A stretch of DNA of 64,000 nt from contig NZ_CP119108.1 of the NCBI RefSeq assembly GCF_029094505.1, forward strand, positions 1,674,001 through 1,738,000, read 5' to 3'. The notes under the pieces were generated by a model. That model was given only the letters and a program-made list of their open reading frames with translations. It did no database searches and was not told the origin of the DNA. This stretch comes from Microbacterium horticulturae (lineage in GTDB: Bacteria > Actinomycetota > Actinomycetes > Actinomycetales > Microbacteriaceae). Shown in pieces: positions 2,375 to 16,838 of this stretch; within the stretch, counting starts at the first letter, position 1, and each line of letters opens with the position of its first letter. The position numbers and the translations under genes are program-made.

Positions 2375-2445
2375 GGTGGCGTGGCCGAGAGGCTAGGCAC
2401 CGGCCTGCAAAGCCGTTTACACGGGTTCGAATCCCGTCGCCACCT
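2375..2445 (+). tRNA. tRNA-Cys (anticodon GCA)
   Basis: Acceptor GGTGGCG pairs with CGCCACC. The anticodon loop CTGCAAA gives GCA, and the T-arm reads CGGGTTCGAATCCCG. The discriminator is T and CCA is encoded at 2446-2448. It is 71 nt, the usual short class for Cys. Confidence 0.95.
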
Positions 2446-2487
2446 CCACTCTCGGTCTTCGACCGAACAAGTGAAAAGCCTGTACAG

Positions 2488-2559
2488 GCGCGATTGGCGC
2501 AGCGGTAGCGCGCTTCCCTGACACGGAAGAGGTCACTGGTTCGATCCCAGTATCGCGCA
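2488..2559 (+). tRNA. tRNA-Val (anticodon GAC)
   Basis: Acceptor GCGCGAT pairs with ATCGCGC. The anticodon stem CTTCC/GGAAG encloses CTGACAC, giving anticodon GAC (GUC/GUU). CCA is not encoded. Its D-arm and anticodon stem are close to those of the Val-CAC gene at 2025-2097, so the two are related isoacceptors on opposite strands. Confidence 0.95.
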
Positions 2560-2605
2560 CAAAGTCCCGGTAAAAGCGGGAAAGTGTATAGAAGTGTACG
2601 GCATT

Positions 2606-2641
2606 CCCTCCTTGCTCACAGTGTGAGCGGGAGGGTTTTTT
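2606..2641 (+). terminator. Rho-independent terminator of the tRNA cluster
   Basis: A nearly perfect stem (CCCTCC-TTGCTCACA against TGTGAGCGG-GAGGG) is followed by six T residues at 2636-2641. The T-run exists only on the plus strand, so it ends the tRNA transcript rather than the convergent P-ATPase operon. Confidence 0.9.
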
Positions 2642-2696
2642 GTGTCCGGCGGCGGTCTTGGGCCGCTGGCTGCCCGAAGGGAGTCCGTCCGGTGGA

Positions 2697-5048
2697 CTAC
2701 TGAGCGTCAAGGAGGCCGCTCCGGCGGTAGACGAGCACCTTGATCCTGTCGAGGATGAGCATCACCGCGAGCGTGACAAGTGCCACGAGAAGCAATGAGA
2801 GCCAGGAGACGGGGGCGGTGAGTACCCCGAAGAGCACCAACAGCGTCGTCACGAGGATGTTGCCGGCAATGACGCCGCCGACCCACCGGCTCGGCGCGGA
2901 CCACCAGAAGGTATTGCGAGTGCGGGTCATCAGGATCGTGACCATGGCCGAGTAGATCAGGTACGCGAACATCAGCGAGCTGATCTGACCGGGGTCGAGG
3001 TCTTGCGCAGCCTGGAAGTACCAGAGCAGGGCGAGCCCGACGACGACCCAGCCGACGGCGAAGATCGCCGCAGCGCGGGTCAGCCGGGGCATGTCCCACC
3101 GCTCTGGGCTGCTCGAGGCTCCGGCCCGATCCGTGCCCAGGGTGAGGGTCACCAGGTCGTTGAGGATCACTATGAGAACGATGAGGCCGAGGGAGACAGG
3201 GAAGAACCCGGCCAAGATGAAGCCGAACGTCAGCAGCGCGGCCAGTTCGGCAGTCCGGGCGAGCTTGGTGATCGTCCACGTCATCATCCGCCGATAGACA
3301 CGGTGCCCGCTGTCGATGACGTCTGGTACGCCGCCCAGGCCCTCGCTGGTGAGCACGATGCGGGCCGCCGCCTTGGCGACGTCTGTCGCCTCCGCGACCG
3401 CGATCCCGACGTCTGCTTGTTTCAGAGCCGGGGCGTCATTGATTCCGTCGCCGGTCATCCCGACGACGTGCCCAGCGGTCTGCAGCGCCACGACGACGGC
3501 GTGCTTGTCATCCGGGTAGAGCTCGGCCAGCACATCGAAGTCGCTCGGGCGGGTGAGGGCGTCCTGCCGGGTCCCGATCCGTTCGCCCATGCCGACGTCG
3601 GCGGCGATCGCTTGCGCAGTGCGCACGCTGTCGCCGGTGATCATGATCACCCGCACACCGCGCTCGCGCACCTGCCTCAGCACTCCGGCGGCGTCTGCGC
3701 GCGGCGAGTCGGCCAGGGCGATCAGCCCCCGCGCGCGCAACGCATCCTCCGTCGGGCCGGTAGCGACCGCGAGGACCCGTGCGCCGGTCGCGGCCAGTGC
3801 GTCGGCCTGCCCGGCGAAATCTGCCGGCGTGGTGGCCAGGCCGGCGAGGACGGCTGGAGAGCCCAGTGCTACAGCCGCCTGTGCACCGTCGTCGCCGGTG
3901 ATGGTTGCTCTCGACAGCTTCGCCACCGGATCGAAGCCGGTGAACGAGAGCCGGTCCAGCGGCCGGAGAGCGGCGTCCTGCCCGGCGGTGCGGGTGATGG
4001 CGGCGCTGATCGCGTCGGGCGCGTCCGCGTCGGTGGCCGCGATGGCCAGGCGCAGCACGTCGGCTTCGGTCGCGTCGTCGAACCCTGCCAGCCGGGAGAT
4101 TTCGGGTCGGTTGCGGGTGAGGGTGCCGGTCTTGTCGATCAGGAGCACGTCCATCGCAGCCGCCTCCTGAATGCCGGACAGCCCCACCACCAGCGCGCCC
4201 CGGCCGGCGAGCGTGCGGGCCTCGAGCGAGTTCGCGACGGTGAAGCTGGACGGCATGGAGATGGGAATCGTGGCGATGAAAAGGATCACCAGGAACGGCA
4301 AGAGGTCCAGCCACGACTCACCCCGGATCATGGCTGCGATGAGGAGGATGATCGCGAGCGCGACGTCCAGCAGCGCGAGGTAGCGCACGATCGTGAACAG
4401 CAGCTTCTGCAGCCGGCCGGGAGGCTCGGCCCGGCGTACGAGCTCGGCGGTTTTCCCGTACGAACTGGATGCACCTGTCGCGGTCACAGTGCCGATCGCG
4501 GCCCCGTGGCTGATCGTCGCCGCCTGTGACAGCGCGTCGTCGACGCCCTTGGTGACGTCGGCCGACTCGCCGGTCAGTGCGGATTCGTTCACGCTGACCG
4601 CGCCCTCGTCGATGTGCACGTCCGCGGGAACGATGTCGCCTGCGCCCACGTAGACGACATCGCCGGGTACCAGCTCGCGGGCGGGCAGGACCGCCCAGAC
4701 TCCGTCCCGACAGGTGCGGGCAGAGACCTGCAGGTGCTTGTGCAGGTAGCCGATCGCCTGTGCCGCCCGGGTCGCCTGCACCTGCCCGGTGACGGCGGAG
4801 AACACGAGCAATGCGAGCACGAAGACCGCTTGGAGGGTCTTGCCCAGTACCAGCTCGAAGATGATCGCCGCTTCGAGCAACCACGACACCGGGTCCCACA
4901 TCCGCTTCAGCGTGCCGAGCACCGGACCCGTGCGCTTCTCCGGGACCTCGTTGAAGCCGTGCTGGGCACGCCTGCGTATGACTTCCGCGGACGTCAGCCC
5001 GCCGCGAAGGCCGGCCGGCCCGCCCGGGTTGAGACCTCCGCCGGCCAT
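2697..5048 (-). CDS. P3A-type P-type ATPase (plasma-membrane proton-pump family)
   Basis: A 783-residue cation-transporting P-type ATPase, predicted to couple ATP hydrolysis to ion (probably H+) export across the cell membrane. All signature motifs are present: actuator loop LTGES near residue 159, phosphorylation motif DKTGTLT with the acyl-phosphate Asp at about 305, TGDS near 471 and the hinge TGDGINDAP near 532. The early block DPVSWLLEAA and the membrane motif IPISMP resemble plant/fungal-type P3A H+-ATPases rather than Ca2+, heavy-metal or K+ pumps. The first ATG after the upstream phosphatase stop (13 bp away) is used; a longer reading frame extends inside the phosphatase gene but that extension is shadow sequence. 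Last gene of a five-gene minus-strand operon. The ion specificity is inferred. Confidence 0.85.
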   Translation of the reverse strand: MAGGGLNPGGPAGLRGGLTSAEVIRRRAQHGFNEVPEKRTGPVLGTLKRMWDPVSWLLEAAIIFELVLGKTLQAVFVLALLVFSAVTGQVQATRAAQAIGYLHKHLQVSARTCRDGVWAVLPARELVPGDVVYVGAGDIVPADVHIDEGAVSVNESALTGESADVTKGVDDALSQAATISHGAAIGTVTATGASSSYGKTAELVRRAEPPGRLQKLLFTIVRYLALLDVALAIILLIAAMIRGESWLDLLPFLVILFIATIPISMPSSFTVANSLEARTLAGRGALVVGLSGIQEAAAMDVLLIDKTGTLTRNRPEISRLAGFDDATEADVLRLAIAATDADAPDAISAAITRTAGQDAALRPLDRLSFTGFDPVAKLSRATITGDDGAQAAVALGSPAVLAGLATTPADFAGQADALAATGARVLAVATGPTEDALRARGLIALADSPRADAAGVLRQVRERGVRVIMITGDSVRTAQAIAADVGMGERIGTRQDALTRPSDFDVLAELYPDDKHAVVVALQTAGHVVGMTGDGINDAPALKQADVGIAVAEATDVAKAAARIVLTSEGLGGVPDVIDSGHRVYRRMMTWTITKLARTAELAALLTFGFILAGFFPVSLGLIVLIVILNDLVTLTLGTDRAGASSSPERWDMPRLTRAAAIFAVGWVVVGLALLWYFQAAQDLDPGQISSLMFAYLIYSAMVTILMTRTRNTFWWSAPSRWVGGVIAGNILVTTLLVLFGVLTAPVSWLSLLLVALVTLAVMLILDRIKVLVYRRSGLLDAQ

Positions 5049-5061
5049 CAACGCGCCCGGC

Positions 5062-5625
5062 TCATGGTGCGATGGGCATGGGGACGCGGCCTGCGACGAT
5101 GACGCGCCAACCGCCGTGGTCCCAGTGCAACTCGGACCATGATCCGGTGGGGATGACGGGTTCCTCACCATCGGTGAAGCCGGCGATGAGAGGCTTGATG
5201 ACCGCGTCGTGGGACACGATGACGACTGCGCGATCATCCTGGAGCACGGAGTCAAGTGCGGGACGGACGCGCGCGACCACGTCCGCCGTGGCCTCGACGC
5301 CCGGTGCGGCATCCACAGATCCGAACTCCTCGATCACGGCACGGCGCTCGTGGCCGGTCCACGGTCCGTAATCGCGGTCGTTGAACCGCGGGTCCGGACG
5401 GGCGGAGAGATCGAACCGTGCGGCTATCGTCTGTGCGGTGCGCACGGCCCGCTGCAGGGGACTCGAGTAGACCGTCGCGACGTCGGCCGTAGCGAGCACC
5501 GCGGCCACTGCTTCGGCCTGCGCGACGCCCACATCGTCCAGCGGAGGGTCGGACAGTCCGCGCAGCCGGTCCTGGGCGTTCAGCGTGGTCCGTCCGTGCC
5601 GGACGAGGTACACCGTGGCGGTCAT
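5062..5625 (-). CDS. Histidine phosphatase family protein (phosphoglycerate mutase-like fold)
   Basis: A 187-residue cytoplasmic phosphatase of the branch-1 histidine phosphatase family. The catalytic LVRHGRTT motif is at residues 7-14, the conserved Arg/Glu region follows (YSSPLQRAVRTAQ), and the second catalytic His lies in VSHDAVIKP near residue 141. At 187 residues it is shorter than true dPGM mutases (about 230-250), so a phosphatase such as CobC/GpmB type is more likely than a glycolytic mutase. Its ATG overlaps the enolase stop by 4 bp (ATGA), which indicates translational coupling. The pairing with an enolase, which acts on 2-phosphoglycerate, suggests a phosphoglycerate-like substrate, but this is inference. 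Confidence 0.85.
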   Translation of the reverse strand: MTATVYLVRHGRTTLNAQDRLRGLSDPPLDDVGVAQAEAVAAVLATADVATVYSSPLQRAVRTAQTIAARFDLSARPDPRFNDRDYGPWTGHERRAVIEEFGSVDAAPGVEATADVVARVRPALDSVLQDDRAVVIVSHDAVIKPLIAGFTDGEEPVIPTGSWSELHWDHGGWRVIVAGRVPMPIAP

Positions 5626-6914
5626 CGTGCTGTTCCTTCCGTGAGTCCGTACGGGATGCCGGGGCAGTCGGCTTCGATCTCGGTGAGGCGGTTGTACTTC
5701 GCCACGCGCTCACCACGCGCGGGGGCGCCGGACTTGATCTGGCCGACGCCGGTGCCCACGGCCAGGTCGGCGATGAAATCATCGGTGGTCTCTCCCGAAC
5801 GGTGCGACACCATGCATCGCATGTTGCGTTCGCGGGCGACGGCAATGGCGTCGAGCGTACCCGTGACGGTTCCGATCTGGTTCGGCTTGATGAGCACCGC
5901 GTTGGACCAGCCACGAAGCGCGCCCTCTTCGATGCGGCGCGCGTCGGTGACGTACAGGTCGTCGCCGACGAGCTGTACGCGGTGGCAGGTCGCATCGAAC
6001 ATGAGCCGCCACCCTTCATAGTCATCCTCCGCGAACCCGTCTTCGACGCTGCGCAAGGGGTAGGCATCGAGCAGTCTCTCGTAGTACTCGACCAGCTGCC
6101 CGCGGTCGAGCACAGTGCCGTCGATGCGATATCGGCCTTCGCCCTGGGAGAAGCCGTTCGCGGCGGGGTCGATGGCGATCGCCACCTGATCGACGGCCGC
6201 GGTCAGCCCCGTGTCGCCGATGGCTGCGACGAGCAGATCGAGGGCCTCGTGCGGGTTTGCCAGGTCGGGAGCGAAGCCGCCCTCGTCGCCGAGTCCCGCG
6301 GTGCCGAAGCTCTGCTTCACACGGGCGGCGAGGGCGTGGTAGATCTCGGCGCCCATGCGCACCGCCTCGTCTTCGCTGGCGGCCCCGACCGGAGCGACCA
6401 TGAACTCCTGGAAGTCCAGCGGGTTCGCCGCATGCGCGCCGCCGTTGAGCACGTTGAAGTGGGGGACCGGCAGTCGCTCGGCGCTGCCGGTCAGTCGGGA
6501 CAGCCACGCGTGCACGCTCGTGCCGGCAACGTGGGCGAAGGCCCGTGTGGCGGCGATCGAGACGGCGACGACGGCGTTCGCGCCCAGCCGCGCAAGATTC
6601 TCGGTGCCGTCCAGATCGATCATTGCCGCGTCGAGGTCGTGCAGAGTGGCCCAAGGGCGCGAAGTCAGCACTTCAGCGAGTTCTCCGGTGACGGATGCCA
6701 CGGCTTTGTGCACGCCGCGTCCGGAGAATGCGTCCCCGCCGTCACGGAGCTCCACCGCTTCGAACTCACCGGTCGAGGCCCCGGCCGGCGCAGACGCGTC
6801 CACGGTCGTCCCGTCGCCGAGTGTCAGGCGCACGGCGACCGTGGGGTATCCGCGCGAGTCGAGGATGTGGCGCGCGGCGACGGCACTGACCGTCACCTTG
6901 CTGTCATCGGGCAT
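5622..6914 (-). CDS. eno: Enolase (phosphopyruvate hydratase), divergent paralogue
   Basis: A 430-residue enolase, predicted to interconvert 2-phosphoglycerate and phosphoenolpyruvate. The active site is complete: H161 (GGAHAAN), E170, E211 (GDEGG), metal ligands D249, E291 (VEDGFAEDD) and D318, K343 (LIKPNQIG), the SHRSGET loop with H371, and K394. Surrounding positions differ from housekeeping enolases, for example HFNVLNGG and NPLDFQEF, so this may be a second, accessory enolase. That needs the rest of the genome. The ATG at 6914 has the strong ribosome-binding site AAGGAG and overlaps the preceding MutS-like gene by 11 bp. Its position in a MutS/P-ATPase operon, away from the ftsB-type neighbourhood usual for actinobacterial eno, is odd. 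Confidence 0.9.
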   Translation of the reverse strand: MPDDSKVTVSAVAARHILDSRGYPTVAVRLTLGDGTTVDASAPAGASTGEFEAVELRDGGDAFSGRGVHKAVASVTGELAEVLTSRPWATLHDLDAAMIDLDGTENLARLGANAVVAVSIAATRAFAHVAGTSVHAWLSRLTGSAERLPVPHFNVLNGGAHAANPLDFQEFMVAPVGAASEDEAVRMGAEIYHALAARVKQSFGTAGLGDEGGFAPDLANPHEALDLLVAAIGDTGLTAAVDQVAIAIDPAANGFSQGEGRYRIDGTVLDRGQLVEYYERLLDAYPLRSVEDGFAEDDYEGWRLMFDATCHRVQLVGDDLYVTDARRIEEGALRGWSNAVLIKPNQIGTVTGTLDAIAVARERNMRCMVSHRSGETTDDFIADLAVGTGVGQIKSGAPARGERVAKYNRLTEIEADCPGIPYGLTEGTAR

Positions 6915-8454
6915 TGGTGTCTCCTTCTGTGTGGGGATCGTCGCGTCCGCCTCCGTCGCCGGCCTGCGCGAGCCTCGTGCCGAAGACGCGGTCGTACAGG
7001 TCGACGCCGTAGCTCGTGGCGAGCGGGGCGCCCGCCTCGAGCCGGTAGCTGCGGGTCCCCGTGGCGTCGCGCGGGGCACGCAGGAACTCGGCGCCGAGTC
7101 CGGCGCCCTGGACGGCGTGGGCGAAGTCGTACATGTGGGTGACGTACCGCACGCGCACGCCGGCCTTGACGAGGGCGGATGTCACGTCGAGGGCGATCTG
7201 GGATCCTTCGGCCTCGTTGGTGGACGCGAAGGATTCATTGCACAGGAGCAGATCGCCGGGTCGGATGCGGTCGATGAGCCCGCTCATCCGATCGAGTTCT
7301 TCGTCGAGCTTTCCGTGTCGCAGTTCGGTGTCCTCCTCACGGGTCCCGTGGGTGAGCACCTGACCGGCAGTCGGGCATGAGAAGTGGGATGCCGCGACGA
7401 TCCCTCCCGATTGCGCCATCAGCTGTGCGGTGCCCAGCGCCCGGAGGAACGTGGATTTGCCGCCGTGGTTGGCGCCGGTGATGACGAGCAGCCCTCCGTC
7501 GTTGAGGGAGAGGTCGTTTCCGACCGGGGCGGTGCCCGCGCGCAGGGCGAGACAGGGGTCGCACAGCGCGGTCGCGGCGCAGCCGGGTTGGTCGGTGACC
7601 TCGGGGATGCAGGCGGGCACGCCGAGGTCTTCGAGTGCGGCGCGCAGGTTGGCGACGCCCTGGTAGAAGGCGAGCTCGATGCGCAGCTGGCGGAAGAAGT
7701 CGAGCACATGCTCGGTGGATTCGTGCACGGCGGCGGAGACATCGGCGACGCTGCGGGCGCGCAGGTCGGCGAGGGCGTTGAAGCCGGCTTCGTCGCGTTC
7801 GGGGATCGTGAACGCGAACCGGGGCTTGCGCAGGGGAGTGCGGTCGAAGAACCCCTGATTGGCGCGTTTGCCGCGCCGAAGGATCTGCCGGGTCACCTGA
7901 CCGTCACCTCCGACACGGGCGCTCATGAGCATGCCTGGGCCGAACTCGAGCTCTGTGAGCTGACCCCGCATCCGCTGCATATAGGCGTCGTCGAGTTCGC
8001 GGGCGACGATCGCGAAAAGTTCCCGGAATGCTGCGGATCGGAACGCGTCGGTGACCTCGGCGCACAGGGTGCGGAGCGTGTCGAGGCGGTCGGCGAGCTG
8101 GACGAGCATCCGCACGGAGTGGGAGAGCGTGATCTCCGGGCGCCCGCGCACGGGCATCATCAGGATGCCGCGGCGCACCGCCAGCGCGTCCATCGCCACC
8201 GCGTACAGGCCGGCGACGGCATCCGGGTTCTGGAGAACGTCGCGCAGGGCATCCTGCCGGTACGCGACTGTTTCGGGGCTGGTCGCCGGTCGCAGGGTCG
8301 CGGCGCGTGCCACCGCGCGCAGGAATCCATCGCCGGCGCCCATCGCGTCCCAGAGGAAGTCGAGTTCGAGGTCGCGGCGCAGGTCATCCCCCGTGTCGGG
8401 TTCCTCGGCGTCAGGGTCGAAGTCCCAATCTGGGTCGAGCAGCCTGACCTTCAT
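6904..8454 (-). CDS. MutS-like ATPase A (core and ATPase domains only)
   Basis: A 516-residue MutS-family protein. Residues 1-310 are a mostly helical lever/clamp-like region and 320-480 form the ABC-type ATPase: Walker A GANHGGKST at 327-335 and Walker B-like DLLLCNE at 401-407, followed by SFASTNEAEG, the MutS signature region. The mismatch-recognition domain and its Phe-x-Glu motif are absent, and the Walker B aspartate is Asn (N406) while the catalytic Glu is kept. The start ATG overlaps the stop of the second MutS-like gene by 4 bp. The pair probably forms a heterodimeric ATPase acting on DNA structures rather than mismatch repair, which Microbacteriaceae generally lack; this role is inferred. 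Confidence 0.8.
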   Translation of the reverse strand: MKVRLLDPDWDFDPDAEEPDTGDDLRRDLELDFLWDAMGAGDGFLRAVARAATLRPATSPETVAYRQDALRDVLQNPDAVAGLYAVAMDALAVRRGILMMPVRGRPEITLSHSVRMLVQLADRLDTLRTLCAEVTDAFRSAAFRELFAIVARELDDAYMQRMRGQLTELEFGPGMLMSARVGGDGQVTRQILRRGKRANQGFFDRTPLRKPRFAFTIPERDEAGFNALADLRARSVADVSAAVHESTEHVLDFFRQLRIELAFYQGVANLRAALEDLGVPACIPEVTDQPGCAATALCDPCLALRAGTAPVGNDLSLNDGGLLVITGANHGGKSTFLRALGTAQLMAQSGGIVAASHFSCPTAGQVLTHGTREEDTELRHGKLDEELDRMSGLIDRIRPGDLLLCNESFASTNEAEGSQIALDVTSALVKAGVRVRYVTHMYDFAHAVQGAGLGAEFLRAPRDATGTRSYRLEAGAPLATSYGVDLYDRVFGTRLAQAGDGGGRDDPHTEGDTNAR

Positions 8455-10034
8455 CGCTCCTGCCCCTTCCGCGCGCTCATCCGTTCGGTGATCTGCGGGC
8501 CGGTCAACCCGTGCCGGGCTGCCAGGGCGCGCGCGTATGCGCGGCCGTCGGCTTCTCGCCGTTCGACACGGAAGGTGCGGACGGCTGCGTCGTGCGGGTC
8601 GACGGTGCTGACCATCGAAACCGTGCGCTCGTCTAGCCGGGACAGTTCGTCGATGAATGTGACGCAGATCGCGATAGCGTCCACATCGAGGATGCGGTGC
8701 AGCACGTCGCGGGTGAGGATGCGGGCATCCTGCAGCGCGGTCGAGGAGAACACCTCGTTCAGCACCAGTACACAGTTCCCGGTTGCCTGTGTGAGGAGCT
8801 CATGCATTCGCTGGATTTCAGCGCCCAGGCGTCCCTCCAACTCGTCCAGCTGCTCCTCGCGTTCGAATGCGGTGAGCACACGGTCGCACAGGAACACCCG
8901 CACCTGCCGTCCCGGGACGGGGCACCCGATTCCGGCCAGATGGTGAAGCTGTCCGAACGCCCGGGCGGTCGTCGACTTGCCGCCCTGATTCGGACCGGAG
9001 ACGATGATGACCCGCTCGCCGGCAGTCAGGCGGATGTCGTTGCGCACCACCGGCTCGCCGTCGGCGGCCAGACGCGTGGCCAGGGCGACGTCGAAGGTGT
9101 CGCGGGCATCCAGCTCCTTGGTTCCGGCCGAGACCGTGGGGGAGCAGAACGGAAGACCGGCCGCCTGCAGCGGAGCGATGTGCTCGAGCCAGGCCAGGTA
9201 GAACCAGACTTCGGCGGCGAACTGCTGCACGATCTCGTCCCGGTAGCTCTCCGTGCTCGCCGTGAACCGCCGCAGCCGTTCGAACGGGCCCGGATGCACG
9301 AGGGCGGCCTTCTCCAGCACCCACGCCTGTACGTGATCCAGCCCCGGGTCGCGGAACGTCTCAGCGGCGAACTCGGGGTCGCCCGAGCGGAACCGCGCGA
9401 ACGTGTCGAGCACTGCCTCGCGGAGATCGTCCTCACCGTCGGTGGGGGCGACGATCACCTTGCCGCCGCGGATCAGCACGTTGTAGTCCAGCGCGTCGAG
9501 CTCATCGCGGCATCCCTGCGCCTCCCGCTCCAGCTGGGCGAACTCCGCCGAGGCGCGGTAAGCGGCAAGATGGTCGGCCAGTCCCGTCAACGCCACCGAG
9601 CCGGCCGCTGACGCGCTCCCGGACAGGCAGTCGACGAGGCCGGTGACGGCACCCACGTAGCGCCGCACCGCCTCCAGCCGCCACAACTCGCCTTCGAACG
9701 GGTAGTGGGCATGCGCCGCGCCGGCATCGGCCACATCAGAACGGTCCATCTCCTGCAGGAACGCCTTCACGCCATTCCGAAGAGGATCGTCATCGAGCGC
9801 CGCGAAGACCTCCTGCCGATAAGAGACTTCCGCCTCGTCCGCGCAGAGGGTGCGGAATGCATCTGCGGCAGCAGGAGCACGCTTGATCAGCCGGTCAAGC
9901 ACCTGGTCAAGGGCGAGGTCGTGAAGCGCAGCGTCAGACGTGCGGCGCTCTCGGGCAAGCCGTCGATCGCCGGGCGTGAGAACGCTTCGAAAGACCGTGT
10001 CGGTGCGCGAAGCACCGGGGGAAATGACAGGCAC
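8451..10034 (-). CDS. MutS-like ATPase B (core and ATPase domains only)
   Basis: A 527-residue paralogue of the next gene and first in the five-gene operon. A helical N-terminal half (to about 330) precedes the ATPase: Walker A GPNQGGKST at 347-355, Walker B-like VLVLNE at 422-427 and signature VFSSTALQDA. As in its partner, the Walker B Asp is Asn (N426), the Glu is retained, and the mismatch-binding N-terminal domain is missing. Translation starts at GTG 10034 with AGGAG about 6 nt upstream. A 31-nt inverted repeat (10030-10060) covers this site. The matching length and architecture of the two proteins suggest tandem duplication followed by divergence into a heterodimer. Confidence 0.8.
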   Translation of the reverse strand: MPVISPGASRTDTVFRSVLTPGDRRLARERRTSDAALHDLALDQVLDRLIKRAPAAADAFRTLCADEAEVSYRQEVFAALDDDPLRNGVKAFLQEMDRSDVADAGAAHAHYPFEGELWRLEAVRRYVGAVTGLVDCLSGSASAAGSVALTGLADHLAAYRASAEFAQLEREAQGCRDELDALDYNVLIRGGKVIVAPTDGEDDLREAVLDTFARFRSGDPEFAAETFRDPGLDHVQAWVLEKAALVHPGPFERLRRFTASTESYRDEIVQQFAAEVWFYLAWLEHIAPLQAAGLPFCSPTVSAGTKELDARDTFDVALATRLAADGEPVVRNDIRLTAGERVIIVSGPNQGGKSTTARAFGQLHHLAGIGCPVPGRQVRVFLCDRVLTAFEREEQLDELEGRLGAEIQRMHELLTQATGNCVLVLNEVFSSTALQDARILTRDVLHRILDVDAIAICVTFIDELSRLDERTVSMVSTVDPHDAAVRTFRVERREADGRAYARALAARHGLTGPQITERMSARKGQER

Positions 10035-10060
10035 CCGTGACTCCTCTCGTCACAGGTGCC
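10030..10060 (-). promoter_or_regulatory. Hairpin enclosing the ribosome-binding site and start of the MutS/enolase operon
   Basis: Arms GGCACCCGTGAC (10030-10041) and GTCACAGGTGCC (10049-10060) are complementary at 11 of 12 positions, with a 7-nt loop TCCTCTC. On the minus-strand mRNA the loop holds the purine-rich Shine-Dalgarno sequence and one arm contains the GTG start codon. Such a fold would gate translation of the first operon gene; it could equally be a DNA operator. Confidence 0.5.
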
Positions 10061-10233
10061 ATCAGCGCTCTTGCGGTTCGGGCAGATGCCCCGGCGGACT
10101 CCATCGCCGTTGTCTTCAGGATCCCACACTCCAGCGGGCCCGGCAACGGGTGCGTCTGCGCGGAGGCTCGTCCCCACAGATGAGAGTCCTCTCAGACCGC
10201 GCCGATCCTCAGCCGGCTTACATAACGACTTTG

Positions 10234-10239
10234 TAACGT
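10234..10239 (+). promoter_or_regulatory. -10 box of the acyltransferase gene (TAACGT)
   Basis: TAACGT ends 7 nt before the ATG at 10247. The intergenic stretch 10061-10246, between this gene and the divergent MutS operon, holds both promoters and no gene. Confidence 0.35.
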
Positions 10240-10246
10240 CGAAGAG

Positions 10247-11413
10247 ATGTCAGGTTCCTCACGACTTTCCTCGCTGGACGGACTGCGCGGCGCTGCGGCG
10301 CTCATCGTGGTGGTTCACCACTGCTTCCTGGTCTCGCCCGCGTTCGCCGCGGCCTACTACGGCGGCGAGACCGGTGACTCGCCGTTGCGCCTGGCATTGA
10401 TCTACAGCCCGCTGCACCTGCTGTGGGGCGGCGCCGAGGCTGTGGTCGTCTTCTTCGTGCTCTCGGGCTTCGTGCTGGCCCGCGGCATCCGGTCGTCGTC
10501 GTTCGACTGGTTCGCGTACTTTCCGTCGCGCGTGCTGCGGCTGTATGTGCCGGTCGCCGGTGCCGTGGTCCTCGGGTTCGTCCTCCTGCTGGTGCCGCAT
10601 GCGGGCGGTCCTGACAGCCCGTGGCTGCAGCGCGATGCCTCGGACTACGACCTCGGGAGCATGCTGCAGGATCTGACGCTCGTCGGCGGCACGAGCGGCG
10701 TCGTCTCGCCGCTGTGGTCCCTGCGCTGGGAAGTGATCTTCTCGCTGCTGCTGCCGGTCATCGCCTACGCGGCACGGGTGATCCCCGCGTGGCTGTTCGG
10801 CGTGCTGTGCATCGTCCTGTCGGCGGTGGGTGCCGGGCAGGAGAGCGCAGCGATGCAGTACCTGCCGATCTTCGGGGTCGGTGTGGCGCTCGAAGGGGAG
10901 TGGGGGCGCATCGAACGACTGATCGGCGGACTGTCGCGCTGGGGCCGCACTGTGTTGTGGGGCGGGATGCTGCCGCTCGCCGTCGTCCTGCTCAGCATGC
11001 GGTGGCTGCTGCCGCCGTCGCTCGACCATTCCGTGCTCGTCGCGGCCGCGCAGGCGCCGATCGTGCTGGGCGCCGCGCTGCTGGTGGTGATGGCGGCGCA
11101 GTGGGCGCCGCTGTCGAGCTTGCTCTCGTGGCGGCCGATCGGGTGGCTGGGAACTATCTCGTTCAGCCTGTACCTCGTCCATGAGCCGTTCGTGCTCCTG
11201 ATGGCCAGTGCGACCGGGGCGTCGCGCTGGACGCTTCTGACGGCGGTGCCGCTCGCCCTCGTAGCGGCCTGGCTCTTCTGGCGGGTGGTGGAGCGACCCG
11301 CGCACAAGCTTTCGCGCGGCGTGCGCGAACGCGCCCGCGAGAAGAAGACCGTCATGGTCGAGAATCCGCCGGCCGTGGTTCCCGAGCGCGAGCGTGAGCT
11401 TATCCGCATGTGA
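10247..11413 (+). CDS. Membrane acyltransferase (acyltransferase-3 family)
   Basis: A 388-residue polytopic membrane protein of the acyltransferase-3 (OafA/NodX-like) family, which transfers acyl groups to cell-surface sugars or lipids. The N-terminus SSLDGLRGAAALIVVVHH contains the family Arg and catalytic-type His. About ten hydrophobic segments follow, with LGTISFSLYLVHEPF near residues 300-315 being the other conserved block. A charged cytoplasmic tail (about 45 residues) ends the protein. It is transcribed alone, divergent from the MutS operon. The acceptor substrate cannot be told from sequence. Confidence 0.85.
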   Translation: MSGSSRLSSLDGLRGAAALIVVVHHCFLVSPAFAAAYYGGETGDSPLRLALIYSPLHLLWGGAEAVVVFFVLSGFVLARGIRSSSFDWFAYFPSRVLRLYVPVAGAVVLGFVLLLVPHAGGPDSPWLQRDASDYDLGSMLQDLTLVGGTSGVVSPLWSLRWEVIFSLLLPVIAYAARVIPAWLFGVLCIVLSAVGAGQESAAMQYLPIFGVGVALEGEWGRIERLIGGLSRWGRTVLWGGMLPLAVVLLSMRWLLPPSLDHSVLVAAAQAPIVLGAALLVVMAAQWAPLSSLLSWRPIGWLGTISFSLYLVHEPFVLLMASATGASRWTLLTAVPLALVAAWLFWRVVERPAHKLSRGVRERAREKKTVMVENPPAVVPERERELIRM

Positions 11414-11996: not shown

Positions 11997-13984
<1,988 letters not shown>

Positions 13985-13988
<4 letters not shown>

Positions 13989-14542
13989 CCGACGGGGATG
14001 CCACGGCCGGCGGCATCCCGGATCTCGTCGCCGCGAGCGAGCTGCCCGGTGTGCCCGACGAGTTCCAGCGGCTGTGGACGCCGCACCGGATGGCCTACAT
14101 CCAGGCCGGCGCCGACGCTATGCGCGCCGCGTGCCCGTTCTGCGCGGCGCCCGAGAGGTCTGATGAGCAGGGGCTCATCGTGCATCGCGGTGAGCACGCC
14201 TACGCGCTGTTGAACCTCTTTCCCTACAACTCGGGCCATCTGCTCGTGTGCCCGTACCGTCACATCGCCACATACGACCAGGCGACCGACGAAGAGGTCG
14301 CCGAGATCGGCGCTATCACGCAGCACGCGATGGCTGTGCTGCGGGGAGTGTCGAAGTGCGACGGCTTCAACATCGGCATGAACCAGGGGCGGGTGGCAGG
14401 GGCCGGCGTCGACGAGCATCTGCACCAGCACATCGTGCCGCGGTGGGAGACCGACGCGAACTTCTTCCCGATCATCGCGCGGACGAAGGCGCTGCCGCAG
14501 CTTCTGGGCGAAGTGCGGCAGGCTGTCGCCGACGCGTGGTGA
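13985..14542 (+). CDS. HIT-family nucleotide hydrolase/phosphorylase
   Basis: A 185-residue histidine-triad protein. The catalytic [10 protein letters not shown] (H-x-H-x-H) is near residues 141-150, the upstream CPFC pair is a zinc knuckle, and [17 protein letters not shown] is the conserved nucleotide-binding segment. These match the actinobacterial AP4A phosphorylase-like HIT proteins found after thrS. ATG at 13985 overlaps the thrS stop (ATGA). The usual followers in related genomes (phosphatidylinositol phosphate synthase, acyltransferase, mannosyltransferase) are absent here. Confidence 0.9.
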
Positions 14543-14560
14543 GCGACCGGCGTTCGCTCA

Positions 14561-14618
14561 ACATGCTGGATCGGTGTTTTCGGGCGTCATCCGAGCCAGG
14601 GCATGCGATCCAGCATGT
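14561..14618. repeat. Palindromic hairpin between convergent HIT and pdxY genes
   Basis: Perfect 13-bp arms (ACATGCTGGATCG at 14561-14573 and its complement at 14606-14618) enclose 32 nt. There is no T-run. It probably ends transcription from both sides. The inner TGTTTTCGGGC also occurs upstream of rpsD (about 33169-33179), and a similar GTGTTTTCG occurs in the 72-nt hairpins at 32807 and 32977, hinting at a family of intergenic palindromes. Confidence 0.6.
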
Positions 14619-14641
14619 CGACGACACGGCTTACGTCGGGC

Positions 14642-15493
14642 TCAGCGCACCTGCGTGACCTCGAACTGCAAGGCCGGGTGGGCGTAGAACTCCTGTGCCT
14701 CGACGAGCTGCAGCTCGCGCTTGCCCGACTCGTGGGTGAGACGCAGTAGGTCCCAGACGCTCGACGTCGTGCGGGCCAGGGCCTCGGCGGCGCTGCCCGT
14801 GGCACGGTAGTGGGCCGTGAACAGGGCGGCGGTCACGTCTCCTGAGCCGTTCGCCTTCAACGGCAGGAGCGGCGTCTGCACGATCCAGGCACCGGCGTCG
14901 TCGACGGCCAGCATCTCGATGGTGCCCTCAGGCCTGTCGGGACGCTCGACGCTGGTGACCAGCACGGTGCGGGGACCGATCGCGCGGGCCGCGTCGACAG
15001 AGGCGAGCGTGGACTCGAGATCGGCCGGCTCGGTACGGGTGAGGTAGCCGAGCTCGAACTGGTTCGGCGTGATGATGTCGGCGGCGGGCACGACGCGGTC
15101 GCGCAGCAGGTCGGGAATGGCCGGGGCGACGAAGCAGCCCGACCTGGCGTTGCCCATCACCGGATCGCAGGCGTACACAGCGTTCGGGTTCGCGGCCTTC
15201 ACGCGAGCGACGGCATCGAGGATCACGTCGGCGATGCCCTCGCCGCCCTGGTAGCCGCTGAGCACCACGTCGATCTCGTCGAGCACTCCGCGCTCTTCGA
15301 CGCCCGTGATGACGTCGCGCACGTCGTCGGGGCTGATCATCGGGCCGCGCCAGGCGCCGTAGCCGGTGTGGTTCGAGAAGTTCACGGTGTAGACAGGCAG
15401 CACCTCGACGCCGATCCGCTGGAGCGGGAAGACGGCGGCCGAGTTGCCGACGTGACCGTAGGCGACGGCGGACTGGATGGAGAGGATGTTCAC
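14642..15493 (-). CDS. pdxY: Pyridoxal kinase
   Basis: A 283-residue ribokinase-superfamily enzyme that phosphorylates pyridoxal (and related B6 vitamers) to pyridoxal 5'-phosphate. Diagnostic features are the start ILSIQSAVAYGHVGNSAAVFPLQ-like segment, SGYQGGEGI, DPVMG, TPNQFELGYLT, and the anion-hole/catalytic motif NGSGDVTAALF near residue 222. It sits 7 bp downstream of pdxR on the same strand, so the two form an operon that combines salvage with control of de novo B6 synthesis. Confidence 0.93.
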   Translation of the reverse strand: MNILSIQSAVAYGHVGNSAAVFPLQRIGVEVLPVYTVNFSNHTGYGAWRGPMISPDDVRDVITGVEERGVLDEIDVVLSGYQGGEGIADVILDAVARVKAANPNAVYACDPVMGNARSGCFVAPAIPDLLRDRVVPAADIITPNQFELGYLTRTEPADLESTLASVDAARAIGPRTVLVTSVERPDRPEGTIEMLAVDDAGAWIVQTPLLPLKANGSGDVTAALFTAHYRATGSAAEALARTTSSVWDLLRLTHESGKRELQLVEAQEFYAHPALQFEVTQVR

Positions 15494-15500
15494 CGGTCGA

Positions 15501-16838
15501 TCATCCCACCTTCGAAACGGCGGCCGTGACGGCGGCGCTCAGATCGGCGGCCAGCTGATCGGCATCGGCATCGTCGAGGTCGTGCACCGTCAGCCGGAGA
15601 TGATGGGATGCCGCGTCCGTCAGGGCGAAGTCGTCTCCGAGTCGCGCGAGCCAGCCGCGCCGCATGAGCTGCTCGCCCACGTCGCGCGCGGGCGCGGGGG
15701 TGCGGATCCACACGTTGAGTCCGTCGCTGGATGCCGCGACCGGCGCCGGCGCGTCGTGACCGTGCGCGGCGAGCCGGTCGAGGAACGCAGCGTTGCGCTG
15801 CGCGTAGTGCCGGCCGGCGGCGTCGATCTGTGCCCGCACGTCGGGGTCGGCCAGGAGCGCGGCTGCCAGTCGCTGCAGCAGATGGCTGACCCACGTGGTG
15901 CCGGGGCTCAGCCGCAGCGACAGGCGCTCTGCGGTCGTGGGATCGGACGCCACGACCGCCAGGCACATGTCAGGTCCGAGGAACTTCGACACGGAGCGGA
16001 CGAGGGCGAATCGGCGATGGTCCGGCGGCACGATGCTGTGGAAGCGCTGCTGGGAGAGCAGTGAGAAATGATCGTCCTCGATCACGAGCGCATAGGGGTG
16101 AGCGCGCAGAACGTCGCGCAGCGCCGCGGCGCGCTCGGTCGACAGGCTGGCGCCCGTCGGGTTCTGCGCACGTGGCGTGCAGATGACGGCCCGGGCCCCG
16201 GCATCCATCGCCTCCTGCAGGCCCTCCACGGTCATGCCGTGCTCATCGACCGGGACCGGAATCGTGCGGTATCCGCCCAGGCGCGCGGTCTGGATGCCCG
16301 CGAGCCAGCAGGGGTCTTCCAGCGCGACCGCGTCGTCGCGGGTGAGTGCCTGGGCGAGCAGGCGTTCGACGGCGTCGACGGCGCCGCTTGTGACGGTGAG
16401 CCGCAGGTCGTGCGCGGGCAGATCTCGTGAGGTCCAGTCACGCGCCCACTCTTCGAGCGCCTCGTCGATGACCGGTTCGCCGTACAGCACCGGACGCCCC
16501 ACGACCGCGGTCAGCGCCGCGGACGGGTCGGGGATGAGGCGCGGATCGGGGTTGCCGGTGCCCACGTCGCGCAGCACGCTGTCGGCGGCGAAGCCCTCCT
16601 GCGGCGTGCGCGTGTGGTCGACGATGCGGGTTCCGCCGCGGCCGTGCGTCTGAGCGATACCGGCCTGCACGAGCTGCCGATAGGCGGAGACGACGGTGTT
16701 GCGGTTGACGGTCAGCCGCTCGGCCAGCGTGCGCACCGGCGGCAGGGGATCTCCTGCCGCGATGCGGCCGTGGTCGTGCAGCTCACGGATGCTCTCGGCG
16801 ATCTCGACGGCCGTCGATCCGGTGATGCGGGGCTCCAT
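15501..16838 (-). CDS. pdxR: MocR-type regulator of vitamin B6 synthesis (PdxR)
   Basis: A 445-residue fusion of a GntR-type winged helix (about 1-75, with PPVRTLAERLTVNRNTVVSAYRQL as the recognition region) and a fold-type I aminotransferase-like domain. The PLP-binding lysine region is RSVSKFLGPDMCLAV near residue 285. Members of this MocR family bind PLP as effector and activate pdxST when PLP is low. The divergent pdxST genes and the palindromes between them support the PdxR call. ATG 16838 is preceded by GAAGGAGGT. The open frame continues far upstream across the pdxS region, but that part is antisense shadow. Confidence 0.9.
   Translation of the reverse strand: MEPRITGSTAVEIAESIRELHDHGRIAAGDPLPPVRTLAERLTVNRNTVVSAYRQLVQAGIAQTHGRGGTRIVDHTRTPQEGFAADSVLRDVGTGNPDPRLIPDPSAALTAVVGRPVLYGEPVIDEALEEWARDWTSRDLPAHDLRLTVTSGAVDAVERLLAQALTRDDAVALEDPCWLAGIQTARLGGYRTIPVPVDEHGMTVEGLQEAMDAGARAVICTPRAQNPTGASLSTERAAALRDVLRAHPYALVIEDDHFSLLSQQRFHSIVPPDHRRFALVRSVSKFLGPDMCLAVVASDPTTAERLSLRLSPGTTWVSHLLQRLAAALLADPDVRAQIDAAGRHYAQRNAAFLDRLAAHGHDAPAPVAASSDGLNVWIRTPAPARDVGEQLMRRGWLARLGDDFALTDAASHHLRLTVHDLDDADADQLAADLSAAVTAAVSKVG

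What the first reader, a model, noticed from the sequence alone, without database searches (positions are those of the whole stretch)
2697..10060. A coupled operon of two MutS-like ATPases, an enolase, a histidine phosphatase and a proton-type P-ATPase
Seen: five minus-strand genes with junctions of 4-bp overlap, 11-bp overlap, 4-bp overlap and a 13-bp gap, all other neighbours being housekeeping genes. Known: MutS-family proteins without the mismatch domain act on DNA structures, enolase handles 2-phosphoglycerate, and P3A pumps export H+. Inference: this tight coupling of a DNA-sensing-type ATPase pair with metabolic and ion-pump genes could be a stress or defence module, or a metabolic unit; it does not match a system I can name.
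Basis: partly seen in the sequence, partly recalled or inferred. Interest (0 to 1): 0.75.

Follow-up and report, generated by a model that had tools for sequence, protein, structure and literature searches.

The report
Fluoride-riboswitch tolerance operon with MutS-like pair
These five linked genes sit directly behind an RNA switch that senses fluoride, so they are very probably a fluoride-tolerance operon; such operons are a known kind, but what their pair of MutS-like proteins does is still unexplained.

Summary
In detail: five coupled minus-strand genes with the stated junctions. A fluoride riboswitch aptamer (RF01734, 39 bits, gathering score 34), the only match in the 3.65-Mb genome, ends 11 bases before the first gene. 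Its pseudoknot strand can also form a 12-bp hairpin that buries the GTG start codon, as in three relatives, suggesting a translational ON switch. So this is very probably a fluoride-tolerance operon: MutS-like ATPase pair, spare enolase, phosphatase, P3A-like proton pump.

The MutS pair co-occurs with fluoride riboswitches in 396 actinobacterial genomes (13 of 15 carriers against 77 of 381 others) and lies in fluoride islands of plasmids. Relatives of the enolase lie beside fluoride-channel genes or a fluoride riboswitch.

A mutS link to this riboswitch was printed in 2010, so the kind is known. Seemingly undescribed: an A/B pair without mismatch domains whose Walker-B Asp is Asn in every complete copy examined. 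Its client is unknown. No defence function is supported.

The parts
10046..10117 (-). Fluoride riboswitch aptamer (crcB motif, RF01734), 5' leader of the operon
   Evidence: cmscan 39 bits, gathering score 34; only match in the genome
10030..10060 (-). 12-bp hairpin: 5' arm is the aptamer's presumed pseudoknot strand, loop holds the presumed ribosome-binding site, 3' arm holds the GTG start codon; presumed OFF state of a translational switch
   Evidence: -24.2 kcal/mol, 0 of 500 dinucleotide shuffles reach it; same hairpin in L008, L106, L005; scanned as terminator-like but without a T run
8451..10034 (-). MutS-like ATPase A (527 aa, GTG start): MutS core and ATPase domains only, Walker-B Asn426
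6904..8454 (-). MutS-like ATPase B (516 aa), paralogue and partner of A, Walker-B Asn406
5622..6914 (-). Second enolase (430 aa), 48% identical to the host's ordinary enolase, active-site positions kept
   Evidence: TIGR01060 484 bits; second copy in the genome; tree and residues
5062..5625 (-). Histidine phosphatase, branch 1 (187 aa)
   Evidence: PF00300 142 bits; no NCBIfam equivalog reached; nearest solved structures are phosphatases
2697..5048 (-). P3A-like proton-pump ATPase (783 aa)
   Evidence: TIGR01647 547.6 bits, below cut-off; nearest solved structures plant and yeast plasma-membrane H+-ATPase

Best explanation
A fluoride-tolerance operon under a fluoride riboswitch. SHOWN by sequence: the aptamer, the coupled genes, a hairpin that pairs the aptamer's presumed pseudoknot strand with the start-codon region, and recurrence of the same families in other fluoride loci. 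INFERRED: without fluoride the hairpin hides the GTG start of the first gene; Mg-bound fluoride fixes the aptamer pseudoknot, frees the start, and translation spreads down the overlapping genes. The products would then protect the cell: the spare enolase tops up the glycolytic step that fluoride blocks; the phosphatase relieves phosphorylated intermediates or frees phosphate; the P3A-like pump exports protons carried in by HF and keeps up the potential that the unlinked CrcB pair (contig position 3.356 Mb) needs for fluoride efflux; the MutS-like A/B pair forms an ATP-driven heterodimeric clamp that acts on something poisoned by Mg-fluoride. My split for that client: ribosome or other protein-nucleic-acid complex 0.35, DNA 0.25, a fluoride-inhibited enzyme such as enolase 0.15, other 0.25. 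The stated confidence is for 'fluoride-tolerance operon', not for these roles.
For: Aptamer above the gathering score, same strand, 11 bases before the first gene and alone in the genome. Hairpin overlapping aptamer and start codon, also in three relatives. MutS-A with the riboswitch in 13 of 15 carriers against 77 of 381 other genomes. 26 of 32 distinct MutS-pair loci have a fluoride riboswitch in the fetched stretch (22 of 28 without the four loci chosen for having one). Plasmid islands holding MutS pair, enolase, mutase or phosphatase, CrcB and, in E. coli, a P-type ATPase similar to this one (733 bits by phmmer). Enolase lineage beside a CrcB pair in 4 of 5 other genomes of the family and near a riboswitch in the fifth. 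A riboswitch-led eno operon was shown by others to be fluoride-induced and to matter for resistance in Enterobacter (PMC5533749, parts 1-2 of 5).
Against: No expression or phenotype data. No fluoride exporter in the operon. In the class sample 20 of 24 other genomes with a riboswitch match lack MutS-A, so the pair is an accessory. 2 of 15 MutS-A carriers have no riboswitch match and 3 have one only on another contig. At the gathering score a riboswitch was found near only 1 of the 5 other enolases of the lineage. Enolase active-site positions are unchanged, so nothing in the sequence shows fluoride tolerance of the enzyme. Partners of the MutS pair vary between loci. The P-type ATPase misses the curated H+-pump cut-off.
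Confidence: 0.93

Rival explanations
1. The MutS pair is a DNA-repair or DNA-structure module, induced because fluoride stress (or what accompanies it) damages DNA, as the 2010 riboswitch paper guessed. The operon is still fluoride-controlled.
For: MutS fold. The clamp-like segment of B is basic on average, +3.6. The genome has no other protein with MutS domain V. Guess in print (PMC2864571, passages).
Against: Mismatch and connector domains not detected. Walker-B Asp and the R697 position changed in both subunits. Clamp-like segment of A not basic, -2.3 on average. No DNA-processing partner was noted among the listed neighbours, though not every neighbour was classified.
Confidence: 0.25
2. 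The MutS pair is a reactivase for fluoride-inhibited enolase, ejecting the Mg-F-phosphate complex, like KamC-type MutS relatives that reactivate an aminomutase.
For: MutS-B and enolase overlap by 11 bp. KamC profile hits both at about 50 bits, and KamC has a similar length. 18 of 137 MutS-pair contig lengths recur among 86 enolase contig lengths, against a mean of 0.37 when the enolase lengths are jittered.
Against: Cut-off for KamC is 300 bits, and MutS2-type proteins score far higher on the profile than members of the pair. Enolase is in the fetched stretch of only 6 of 31 loci, 7 of 32 with L106.
Confidence: 0.15
3. The operon is an anti-phage or other defence module.
For: P-loop ATPases are common in defence. 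The pair is patchy: 3 of 366 genomes of the genus.
Against: PADLOC gives only weak hits to the P-loop region (best 21 bits). The fluoride riboswitch explains the control.
Confidence: 0.02
4. The riboswitch controls only the MutS pair; enolase, phosphatase and pump are neighbours with their own promoters.
For: In other loci the pair is often found without enolase or pump.
Against: Overlaps of 4, 11 and 4 bp leave little room for promoters. No sigma-70-like site was found in 2400-10400, though actinobacterial promoters may differ. The enolase remnant before the phosphatase in M. luticocti points to an older shared order.
Confidence: 0.06

Closest known systems
Fluoride-riboswitch (crcB motif, RF01734) regulon
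   Same: Aptamer in the leader; mutS named as downstream gene (PMC2864571, passages); enolase, phosphatases and Na+/H+ antiporters named in a 2024 review (PMC11139923, passages)
   Different: No exporter in the operon; this exact set of five genes not met elsewhere in what I fetched
Enterobacter cloacae FRM operon ppaC-uspA-eno-gpmA-crcB-orf5249
   Same: Riboswitch-led, with an enolase and a histidine-phosphatase-superfamily mutase; fluoride-induced (PMC5533749, parts 1-2 of 5)
   Different: No MutS pair in the listed genes; it has crcB, ppaC and uspA
MutS2 and MutS
   Same: Core plus ATPase fold, Walker A
   Different: No mismatch or connector domain found, no Pfam Smr or KOW hit, Asn in Walker B, always an adjacent A/B pair in the 34 matches checked
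KamC-type MutS-like reactivase (NF052383)
   Same: Similar length, short MutS architecture, partial profile hit
   Different: About 50 bits against a cut-off of 300

Membership tests
Fluoride-riboswitch regulon | RF01734 aptamer at or above the gathering score, same strand, in the 5' leader | tested here: met
   39 bits against 34, 11 bases before the start codon
Fluoride-riboswitch regulon | Aptamer overlaps an expression platform | tested here: met
   12-bp hairpin sharing the presumed pseudoknot strand and holding the start codon; prediction only
Fluoride-riboswitch regulon | Fluoride binding and induction | not testable with these tools
   Needs in-line probing or expression data
Fluoride-riboswitch regulon | Fluoride exporter (CrcB or CLC-F) in the operon (common, not required) | tested here: not met
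   None among the five genes; host CrcB pair elsewhere
MutS mismatch repair | Mismatch-binding and connector domains | tested here: not met
   Only MutS_V in Pfam; E. coli MutS aligned from about residue 260 in the rows for A and in most rows for B, one row for B from 169 (1ng9_B)
MutS mismatch repair | Walker-B Asp-Glu | tested here: not met
   Asn-Glu in 53 of 53 A rows and 52 of 52 B rows
MutS2 | C-terminal Smr domain and KOW | tested here: not met
   No Pfam hit at E 0.001
KamC reactivase | NF052383 curated cut-off (300 bits) | tested here: not met
   50.1 and 51.0 bits
Enolase | TIGR01060 cut-off and active-site positions | tested here: met
   484 bits against 300; 12 of 12 positions kept (choice of positions recalled)
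P3A H+-ATPase | TIGR01647 curated cut-off (615.5 bits) | tested here: not met
   547.6 bits, though it is the best-scoring P-type family
P3A H+-ATPase | Membrane Asp of the ILND motif (proton carrier in AHA2, recalled) | tested here: met
   ILND aligned with ILND of 5ksd
Anti-phage defence system | Strong PADLOC match over more than the P-loop | tested here: not met
   Best 21.2 bits, model mad8, residues 312-431 of MutS-B

The most novel reading that the evidence does not exclude
The MutS-like A/B pair is a new functional branch of the MutS family: a fluoride-stress remodelling ATPase, not a DNA-repair enzyme. It pulls apart complexes locked by Mg-fluoride transition-state mimics (ribosome-bound GTPases, nucleic-acid-bound P-loop ATPases, or enolase), while its own Walker-B Asp-to-Asn change in both subunits weakens Mg-F-ADP trapping and keeps it working in fluoride.
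Probability: 0.2. Interest if true: 0.78.

Novelty: new member of a known kind. Interest (0 to 1): 0.45.

Why it matters
It turns an unnamed operon into a fluoride-tolerance operon and makes an old loose end testable: why a 'mutS' gene follows fluoride riboswitches, noted in 2010. The pair now has a signature (Walker-B Asn-Glu in both subunits, adjacent A and B, no mismatch domains), so its annotation as DNA mismatch repair protein is probably misleading. A 2020 review (PMC7266159, passages) says that misannotated genes in this riboswitch's network were the larger hurdle in finding its ligand. It also gives a compact translational ON-switch model and marks an enolase lineage to test for fluoride tolerance.

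Tried and rejected
Defence module: rejected on PADLOC. KamC-type reactivase membership: rejected on score. Fluoride-insensitive enolase by active-site change: looked for and not found; 22 columns set the 16-row lineage apart from both ordinary enolases used, none of them among the 12 active-site positions. Insertion at the tRNA cluster: not settled. L008, L106 and L005 have no tRNA gene, and no PutP, acyltransferase, ACT or ThrRS match, in the fetched stretch, so the cassette sits elsewhere there, but I compared no empty site in a close relative. GC content shows no clear island signature. Each of the three protein searches listed only its best 120 rows (of 2658, 3621 and 7999); the enolase search was cut at 7999 candidates. 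Viral contigs, covariance-model building, DNA alignment and pair counting were not used. Papers: of the 9 I looked at passages of three; the 2 were not opened.

My errors, corrected: two query proteins (window enolase and pump) were cut in a wrong frame and set right; those genes were still found through other queries. In one search the host's ordinary enolase was read on the wrong strand, set right. One search used only part of the contig lengths; one search repeats the count with the fuller lists and a jitter control. An equal contig length alone is not proof: 10,050 is the length both of the contig of P0038 (MutS-A) and of the contig of L116, in which no MutS match was found.
Full report
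WHAT IS THERE. Pfam and NCBIfam support the family names. The window belongs to a 3.65-Mb one-contig genome; 89%-identical relatives of MutS-B and the enolase are named Microbacterium sp.. The genome has a second, ordinary enolase, a CrcB pair elsewhere and no other match to MutS domain V.

THE MISSING PIECE. Rfam finds a fluoride riboswitch aptamer at 10117-10046 on the operon strand, 39 bits against a gathering score of 34, with 11 bases between it and the first start codon. It is the only match in the genome at E 0.001. By my arithmetic, one element placed at random in 7.3 Mb of strand would fall within 100 nt before this operon about once in 70,000 tries.

HOW THE SWITCH PROBABLY WORKS. 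Bases 10060-10055 (GGCACC) correspond to the strand that pairs with loop 1 in the fluoride aptamer's pseudoknot (my assignment, from recalled structures). The same bases start a 12-bp hairpin, 10060-10030, whose other arm holds the GTG start codon. It folds to -24.2 kcal/mol, and 0 of 500 dinucleotide shuffles reach that. Opening the ribosome-binding and start region costs 21.1 kcal/mol freely and 8.8 when the pseudoknot strand is withheld. Of five other leaders folded, M. luticocti L008, G1045 L106 and L005 show the same hairpin with a GTG in its 3' arm; database proteins P0005 and P0010, on contigs of the lengths of those of L008 and L005, begin at that GTG by my reading. In the more distant L101 the corresponding strand is predicted to pair with a GGAGG stretch instead, and L102 does not show it (my reading). 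No T run follows the window's hairpin, so translational control is the simpler reading.

THE MUTS PAIR BELONGS TO FLUORIDE. In 396 genomes of the phylum, 15 carry MutS-A and 90 carry RF01734 at E 0.001 or better, 69 over the gathering score. Thirteen of the 15 carriers have the riboswitch against 77 of 381 others (Fisher p 1.5e-7; with gathering-score matches only, 11 of 15 against 58 of 381, p 1.7e-6). These p-values ignore relatedness between genomes. In 10 of the 15 it lies on the same contig within 6 kb. The misses are G129 and G335 (none found) and G151, G305 and G383 (other contig only). In the class sample, 25 of 394 genomes had a riboswitch match, and of the 24 besides this one only 4 carry MutS-A, so most fluoride riboswitches there have no MutS pair; in those four a riboswitch ends 25-156 bases before a MutS-A match (coordinates). 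Over all distinct MutS-pair loci fetched (31, plus L106), 26 of 32 hold a riboswitch in the fetched stretch, in four of them below the gathering score only (L005, L006, L045, L052). The six without are L009, L048, L053, L054, L055, L057. Four of the 32 were chosen because they had a riboswitch; without them it is 22 of 28.

PLASMIDS. 78 of 72,556 plasmid records have a match to MutS-A, 44 of them over at least 80% of its length. I looked at 8 regions picked from the best rows (the Caballeronia record has no annotation). An E. coli plasmid has antiporter, Usp, MutS pair, P-type ATPase, crcB, phosphoglycerate mutase, enolase, Usp, DHHA2 protein, PAP2 and CLC, with three riboswitches. A Rhodococcus plasmid has the pair, enolase, two CrcB, Usp and histidine phosphatase, with one riboswitch. 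Burkholderia and Alicyclobacillus plasmids are comparable, with five or six riboswitches in the stretch.

ALWAYS A PAIR. In 34 of 34 MutS-A matches in the census (32 without the copies L058 and L059) a MutS-B match follows on the same strand at -1 to 98 nt; one of them is cut by a contig end. A and B are paralogues along most of their length (hhalign E 8e-42, 461 columns).

THE ENOLASE. It is 48% identical to the host's ordinary enolase and 89% to a Microbacterium sp. KR10-403 protein; 12 active-site positions (recalled choice) are kept in 24 of 24 sequences. In 90 genomes of the family, 6 including this one have the lineage at E 1e-140. Of the 5 others, all fetched, 4 have a CrcB pair nearby and the fifth (L114) a fluoride riboswitch upstream; all 5 have a phosphoglycerate-mutase-like gene; only L114 shows a riboswitch at the gathering score. 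G1045 (same genus) has riboswitch, MutS pair, mutase, enolase, CrcB pair and histidine phosphatase within 9 kb. In a 24-row tree (midpoint root, only two ordinary enolases) the lineage of 16 rows has 100/100 support and joins the Rhodococcus and G647 island enolases (100/99), while E. coli-plasmid, Chloroflexi and Burkholderia island enolases fall with the ordinary ones. So islands probably recruited enolases more than once.

HOW CONSERVED IS THE FIVE-GENE ORDER? The pair is rare in the genus: 3 of 366 genomes. M. luticocti has MutS-A, MutS-B, an MFS gene, a 42-codon enolase end and then the phosphatase with the same ATGA overlap, which implies an older MutS-A, MutS-B, enolase, phosphatase order. 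For KR10-403 the order is inferred only. Of 137 distinct contig lengths (5 kb or more) of listed MutS-A or MutS-B hits, 18 recur among 86 enolase contig lengths; with the enolase lengths jittered the mean is 0.37 and the maximum 4 in 2000 tries. Enolase, CrcB, P-ATPase and phosphatase or mutase are in the fetched stretch of 6, 6, 4 and 6 of 31 loci (7, 7, 4 and 7 of 32 with L106); several stretches are short contigs, so these are lower bounds. No single partner is obligatory, which speaks against a client as specific as enolase.

WHAT IS KNOWN. Weinberg et al. 2010 (PMC2864571, passages) placed the crcB motif before mutS and proposed DNA-damaging stress. A 2024 review (PMC11139923, passages) lists enolase, phosphatases and Na+/H+ antiporters; the word MutS does not occur in its text. 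The Enterobacter operon (PMC5533749, parts 1-2 of 5 read) is an experimental precedent for riboswitch-led eno. Baker et al. 2012 was not available. Searches for 'fluoride riboswitch' with MutS and enolase gave 0 papers, for fluoride, riboswitch and 'mismatch repair protein MutS' 0, and 'fluoride resistance' with MutS 1, unrelated by its title and abstract. I found no paper on the function of the pair in this library of open papers; other literature was not searched.

VERDICT. A fluoride-tolerance operon: a known kind, in an unusual composition, around a protein pair whose job is a real open question.

Noticed in passing
P0285 (586 aa): A fusion of a Usp domain (PF00582) with an enolase of this lineage, on a contig whose length (5,806) equals that of the contig of MutS-B relative P0167.
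   Followed up: no
L008:14575-14700: Microbacterium luticocti keeps a 42-codon C-terminal enolase remnant just before the histidine phosphatase, with the same ATGA overlap.
   Followed up: partly
L041, L042, L043; G098 contigs C39 and C43: Arrays of fluoride riboswitches: 6, 5 and 6 within about 21-23 kb of three plasmids and 7 matches in one genome.
   Followed up: no
L100:3342-6355 and 12971-15993: One genome (G647) has two MutS-A/B pairs on the same contig.
   Followed up: no
G000:C1:3355699-3356441: The host's CrcB pair lies far from the operon, and the genome's only fluoride riboswitch match is at the operon, so the channel is not under this kind of control.
   Followed up: partly
8 of 31 MutS-pair loci: A gene similar to an NADH-quinone oxidoreductase subunit H lies in the fetched stretch; formate hydrogenlyase is a named gene class of this riboswitch (PMC2864571).
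   Followed up: no
L116 and L117 (genomes G1154 and G1109): Two genera of the family carry almost identical cassettes of mutase, CrcB pair, PPase and enolase (enolase branch lengths 0 and 0.0025), which suggests recent transfer.
   Followed up: no
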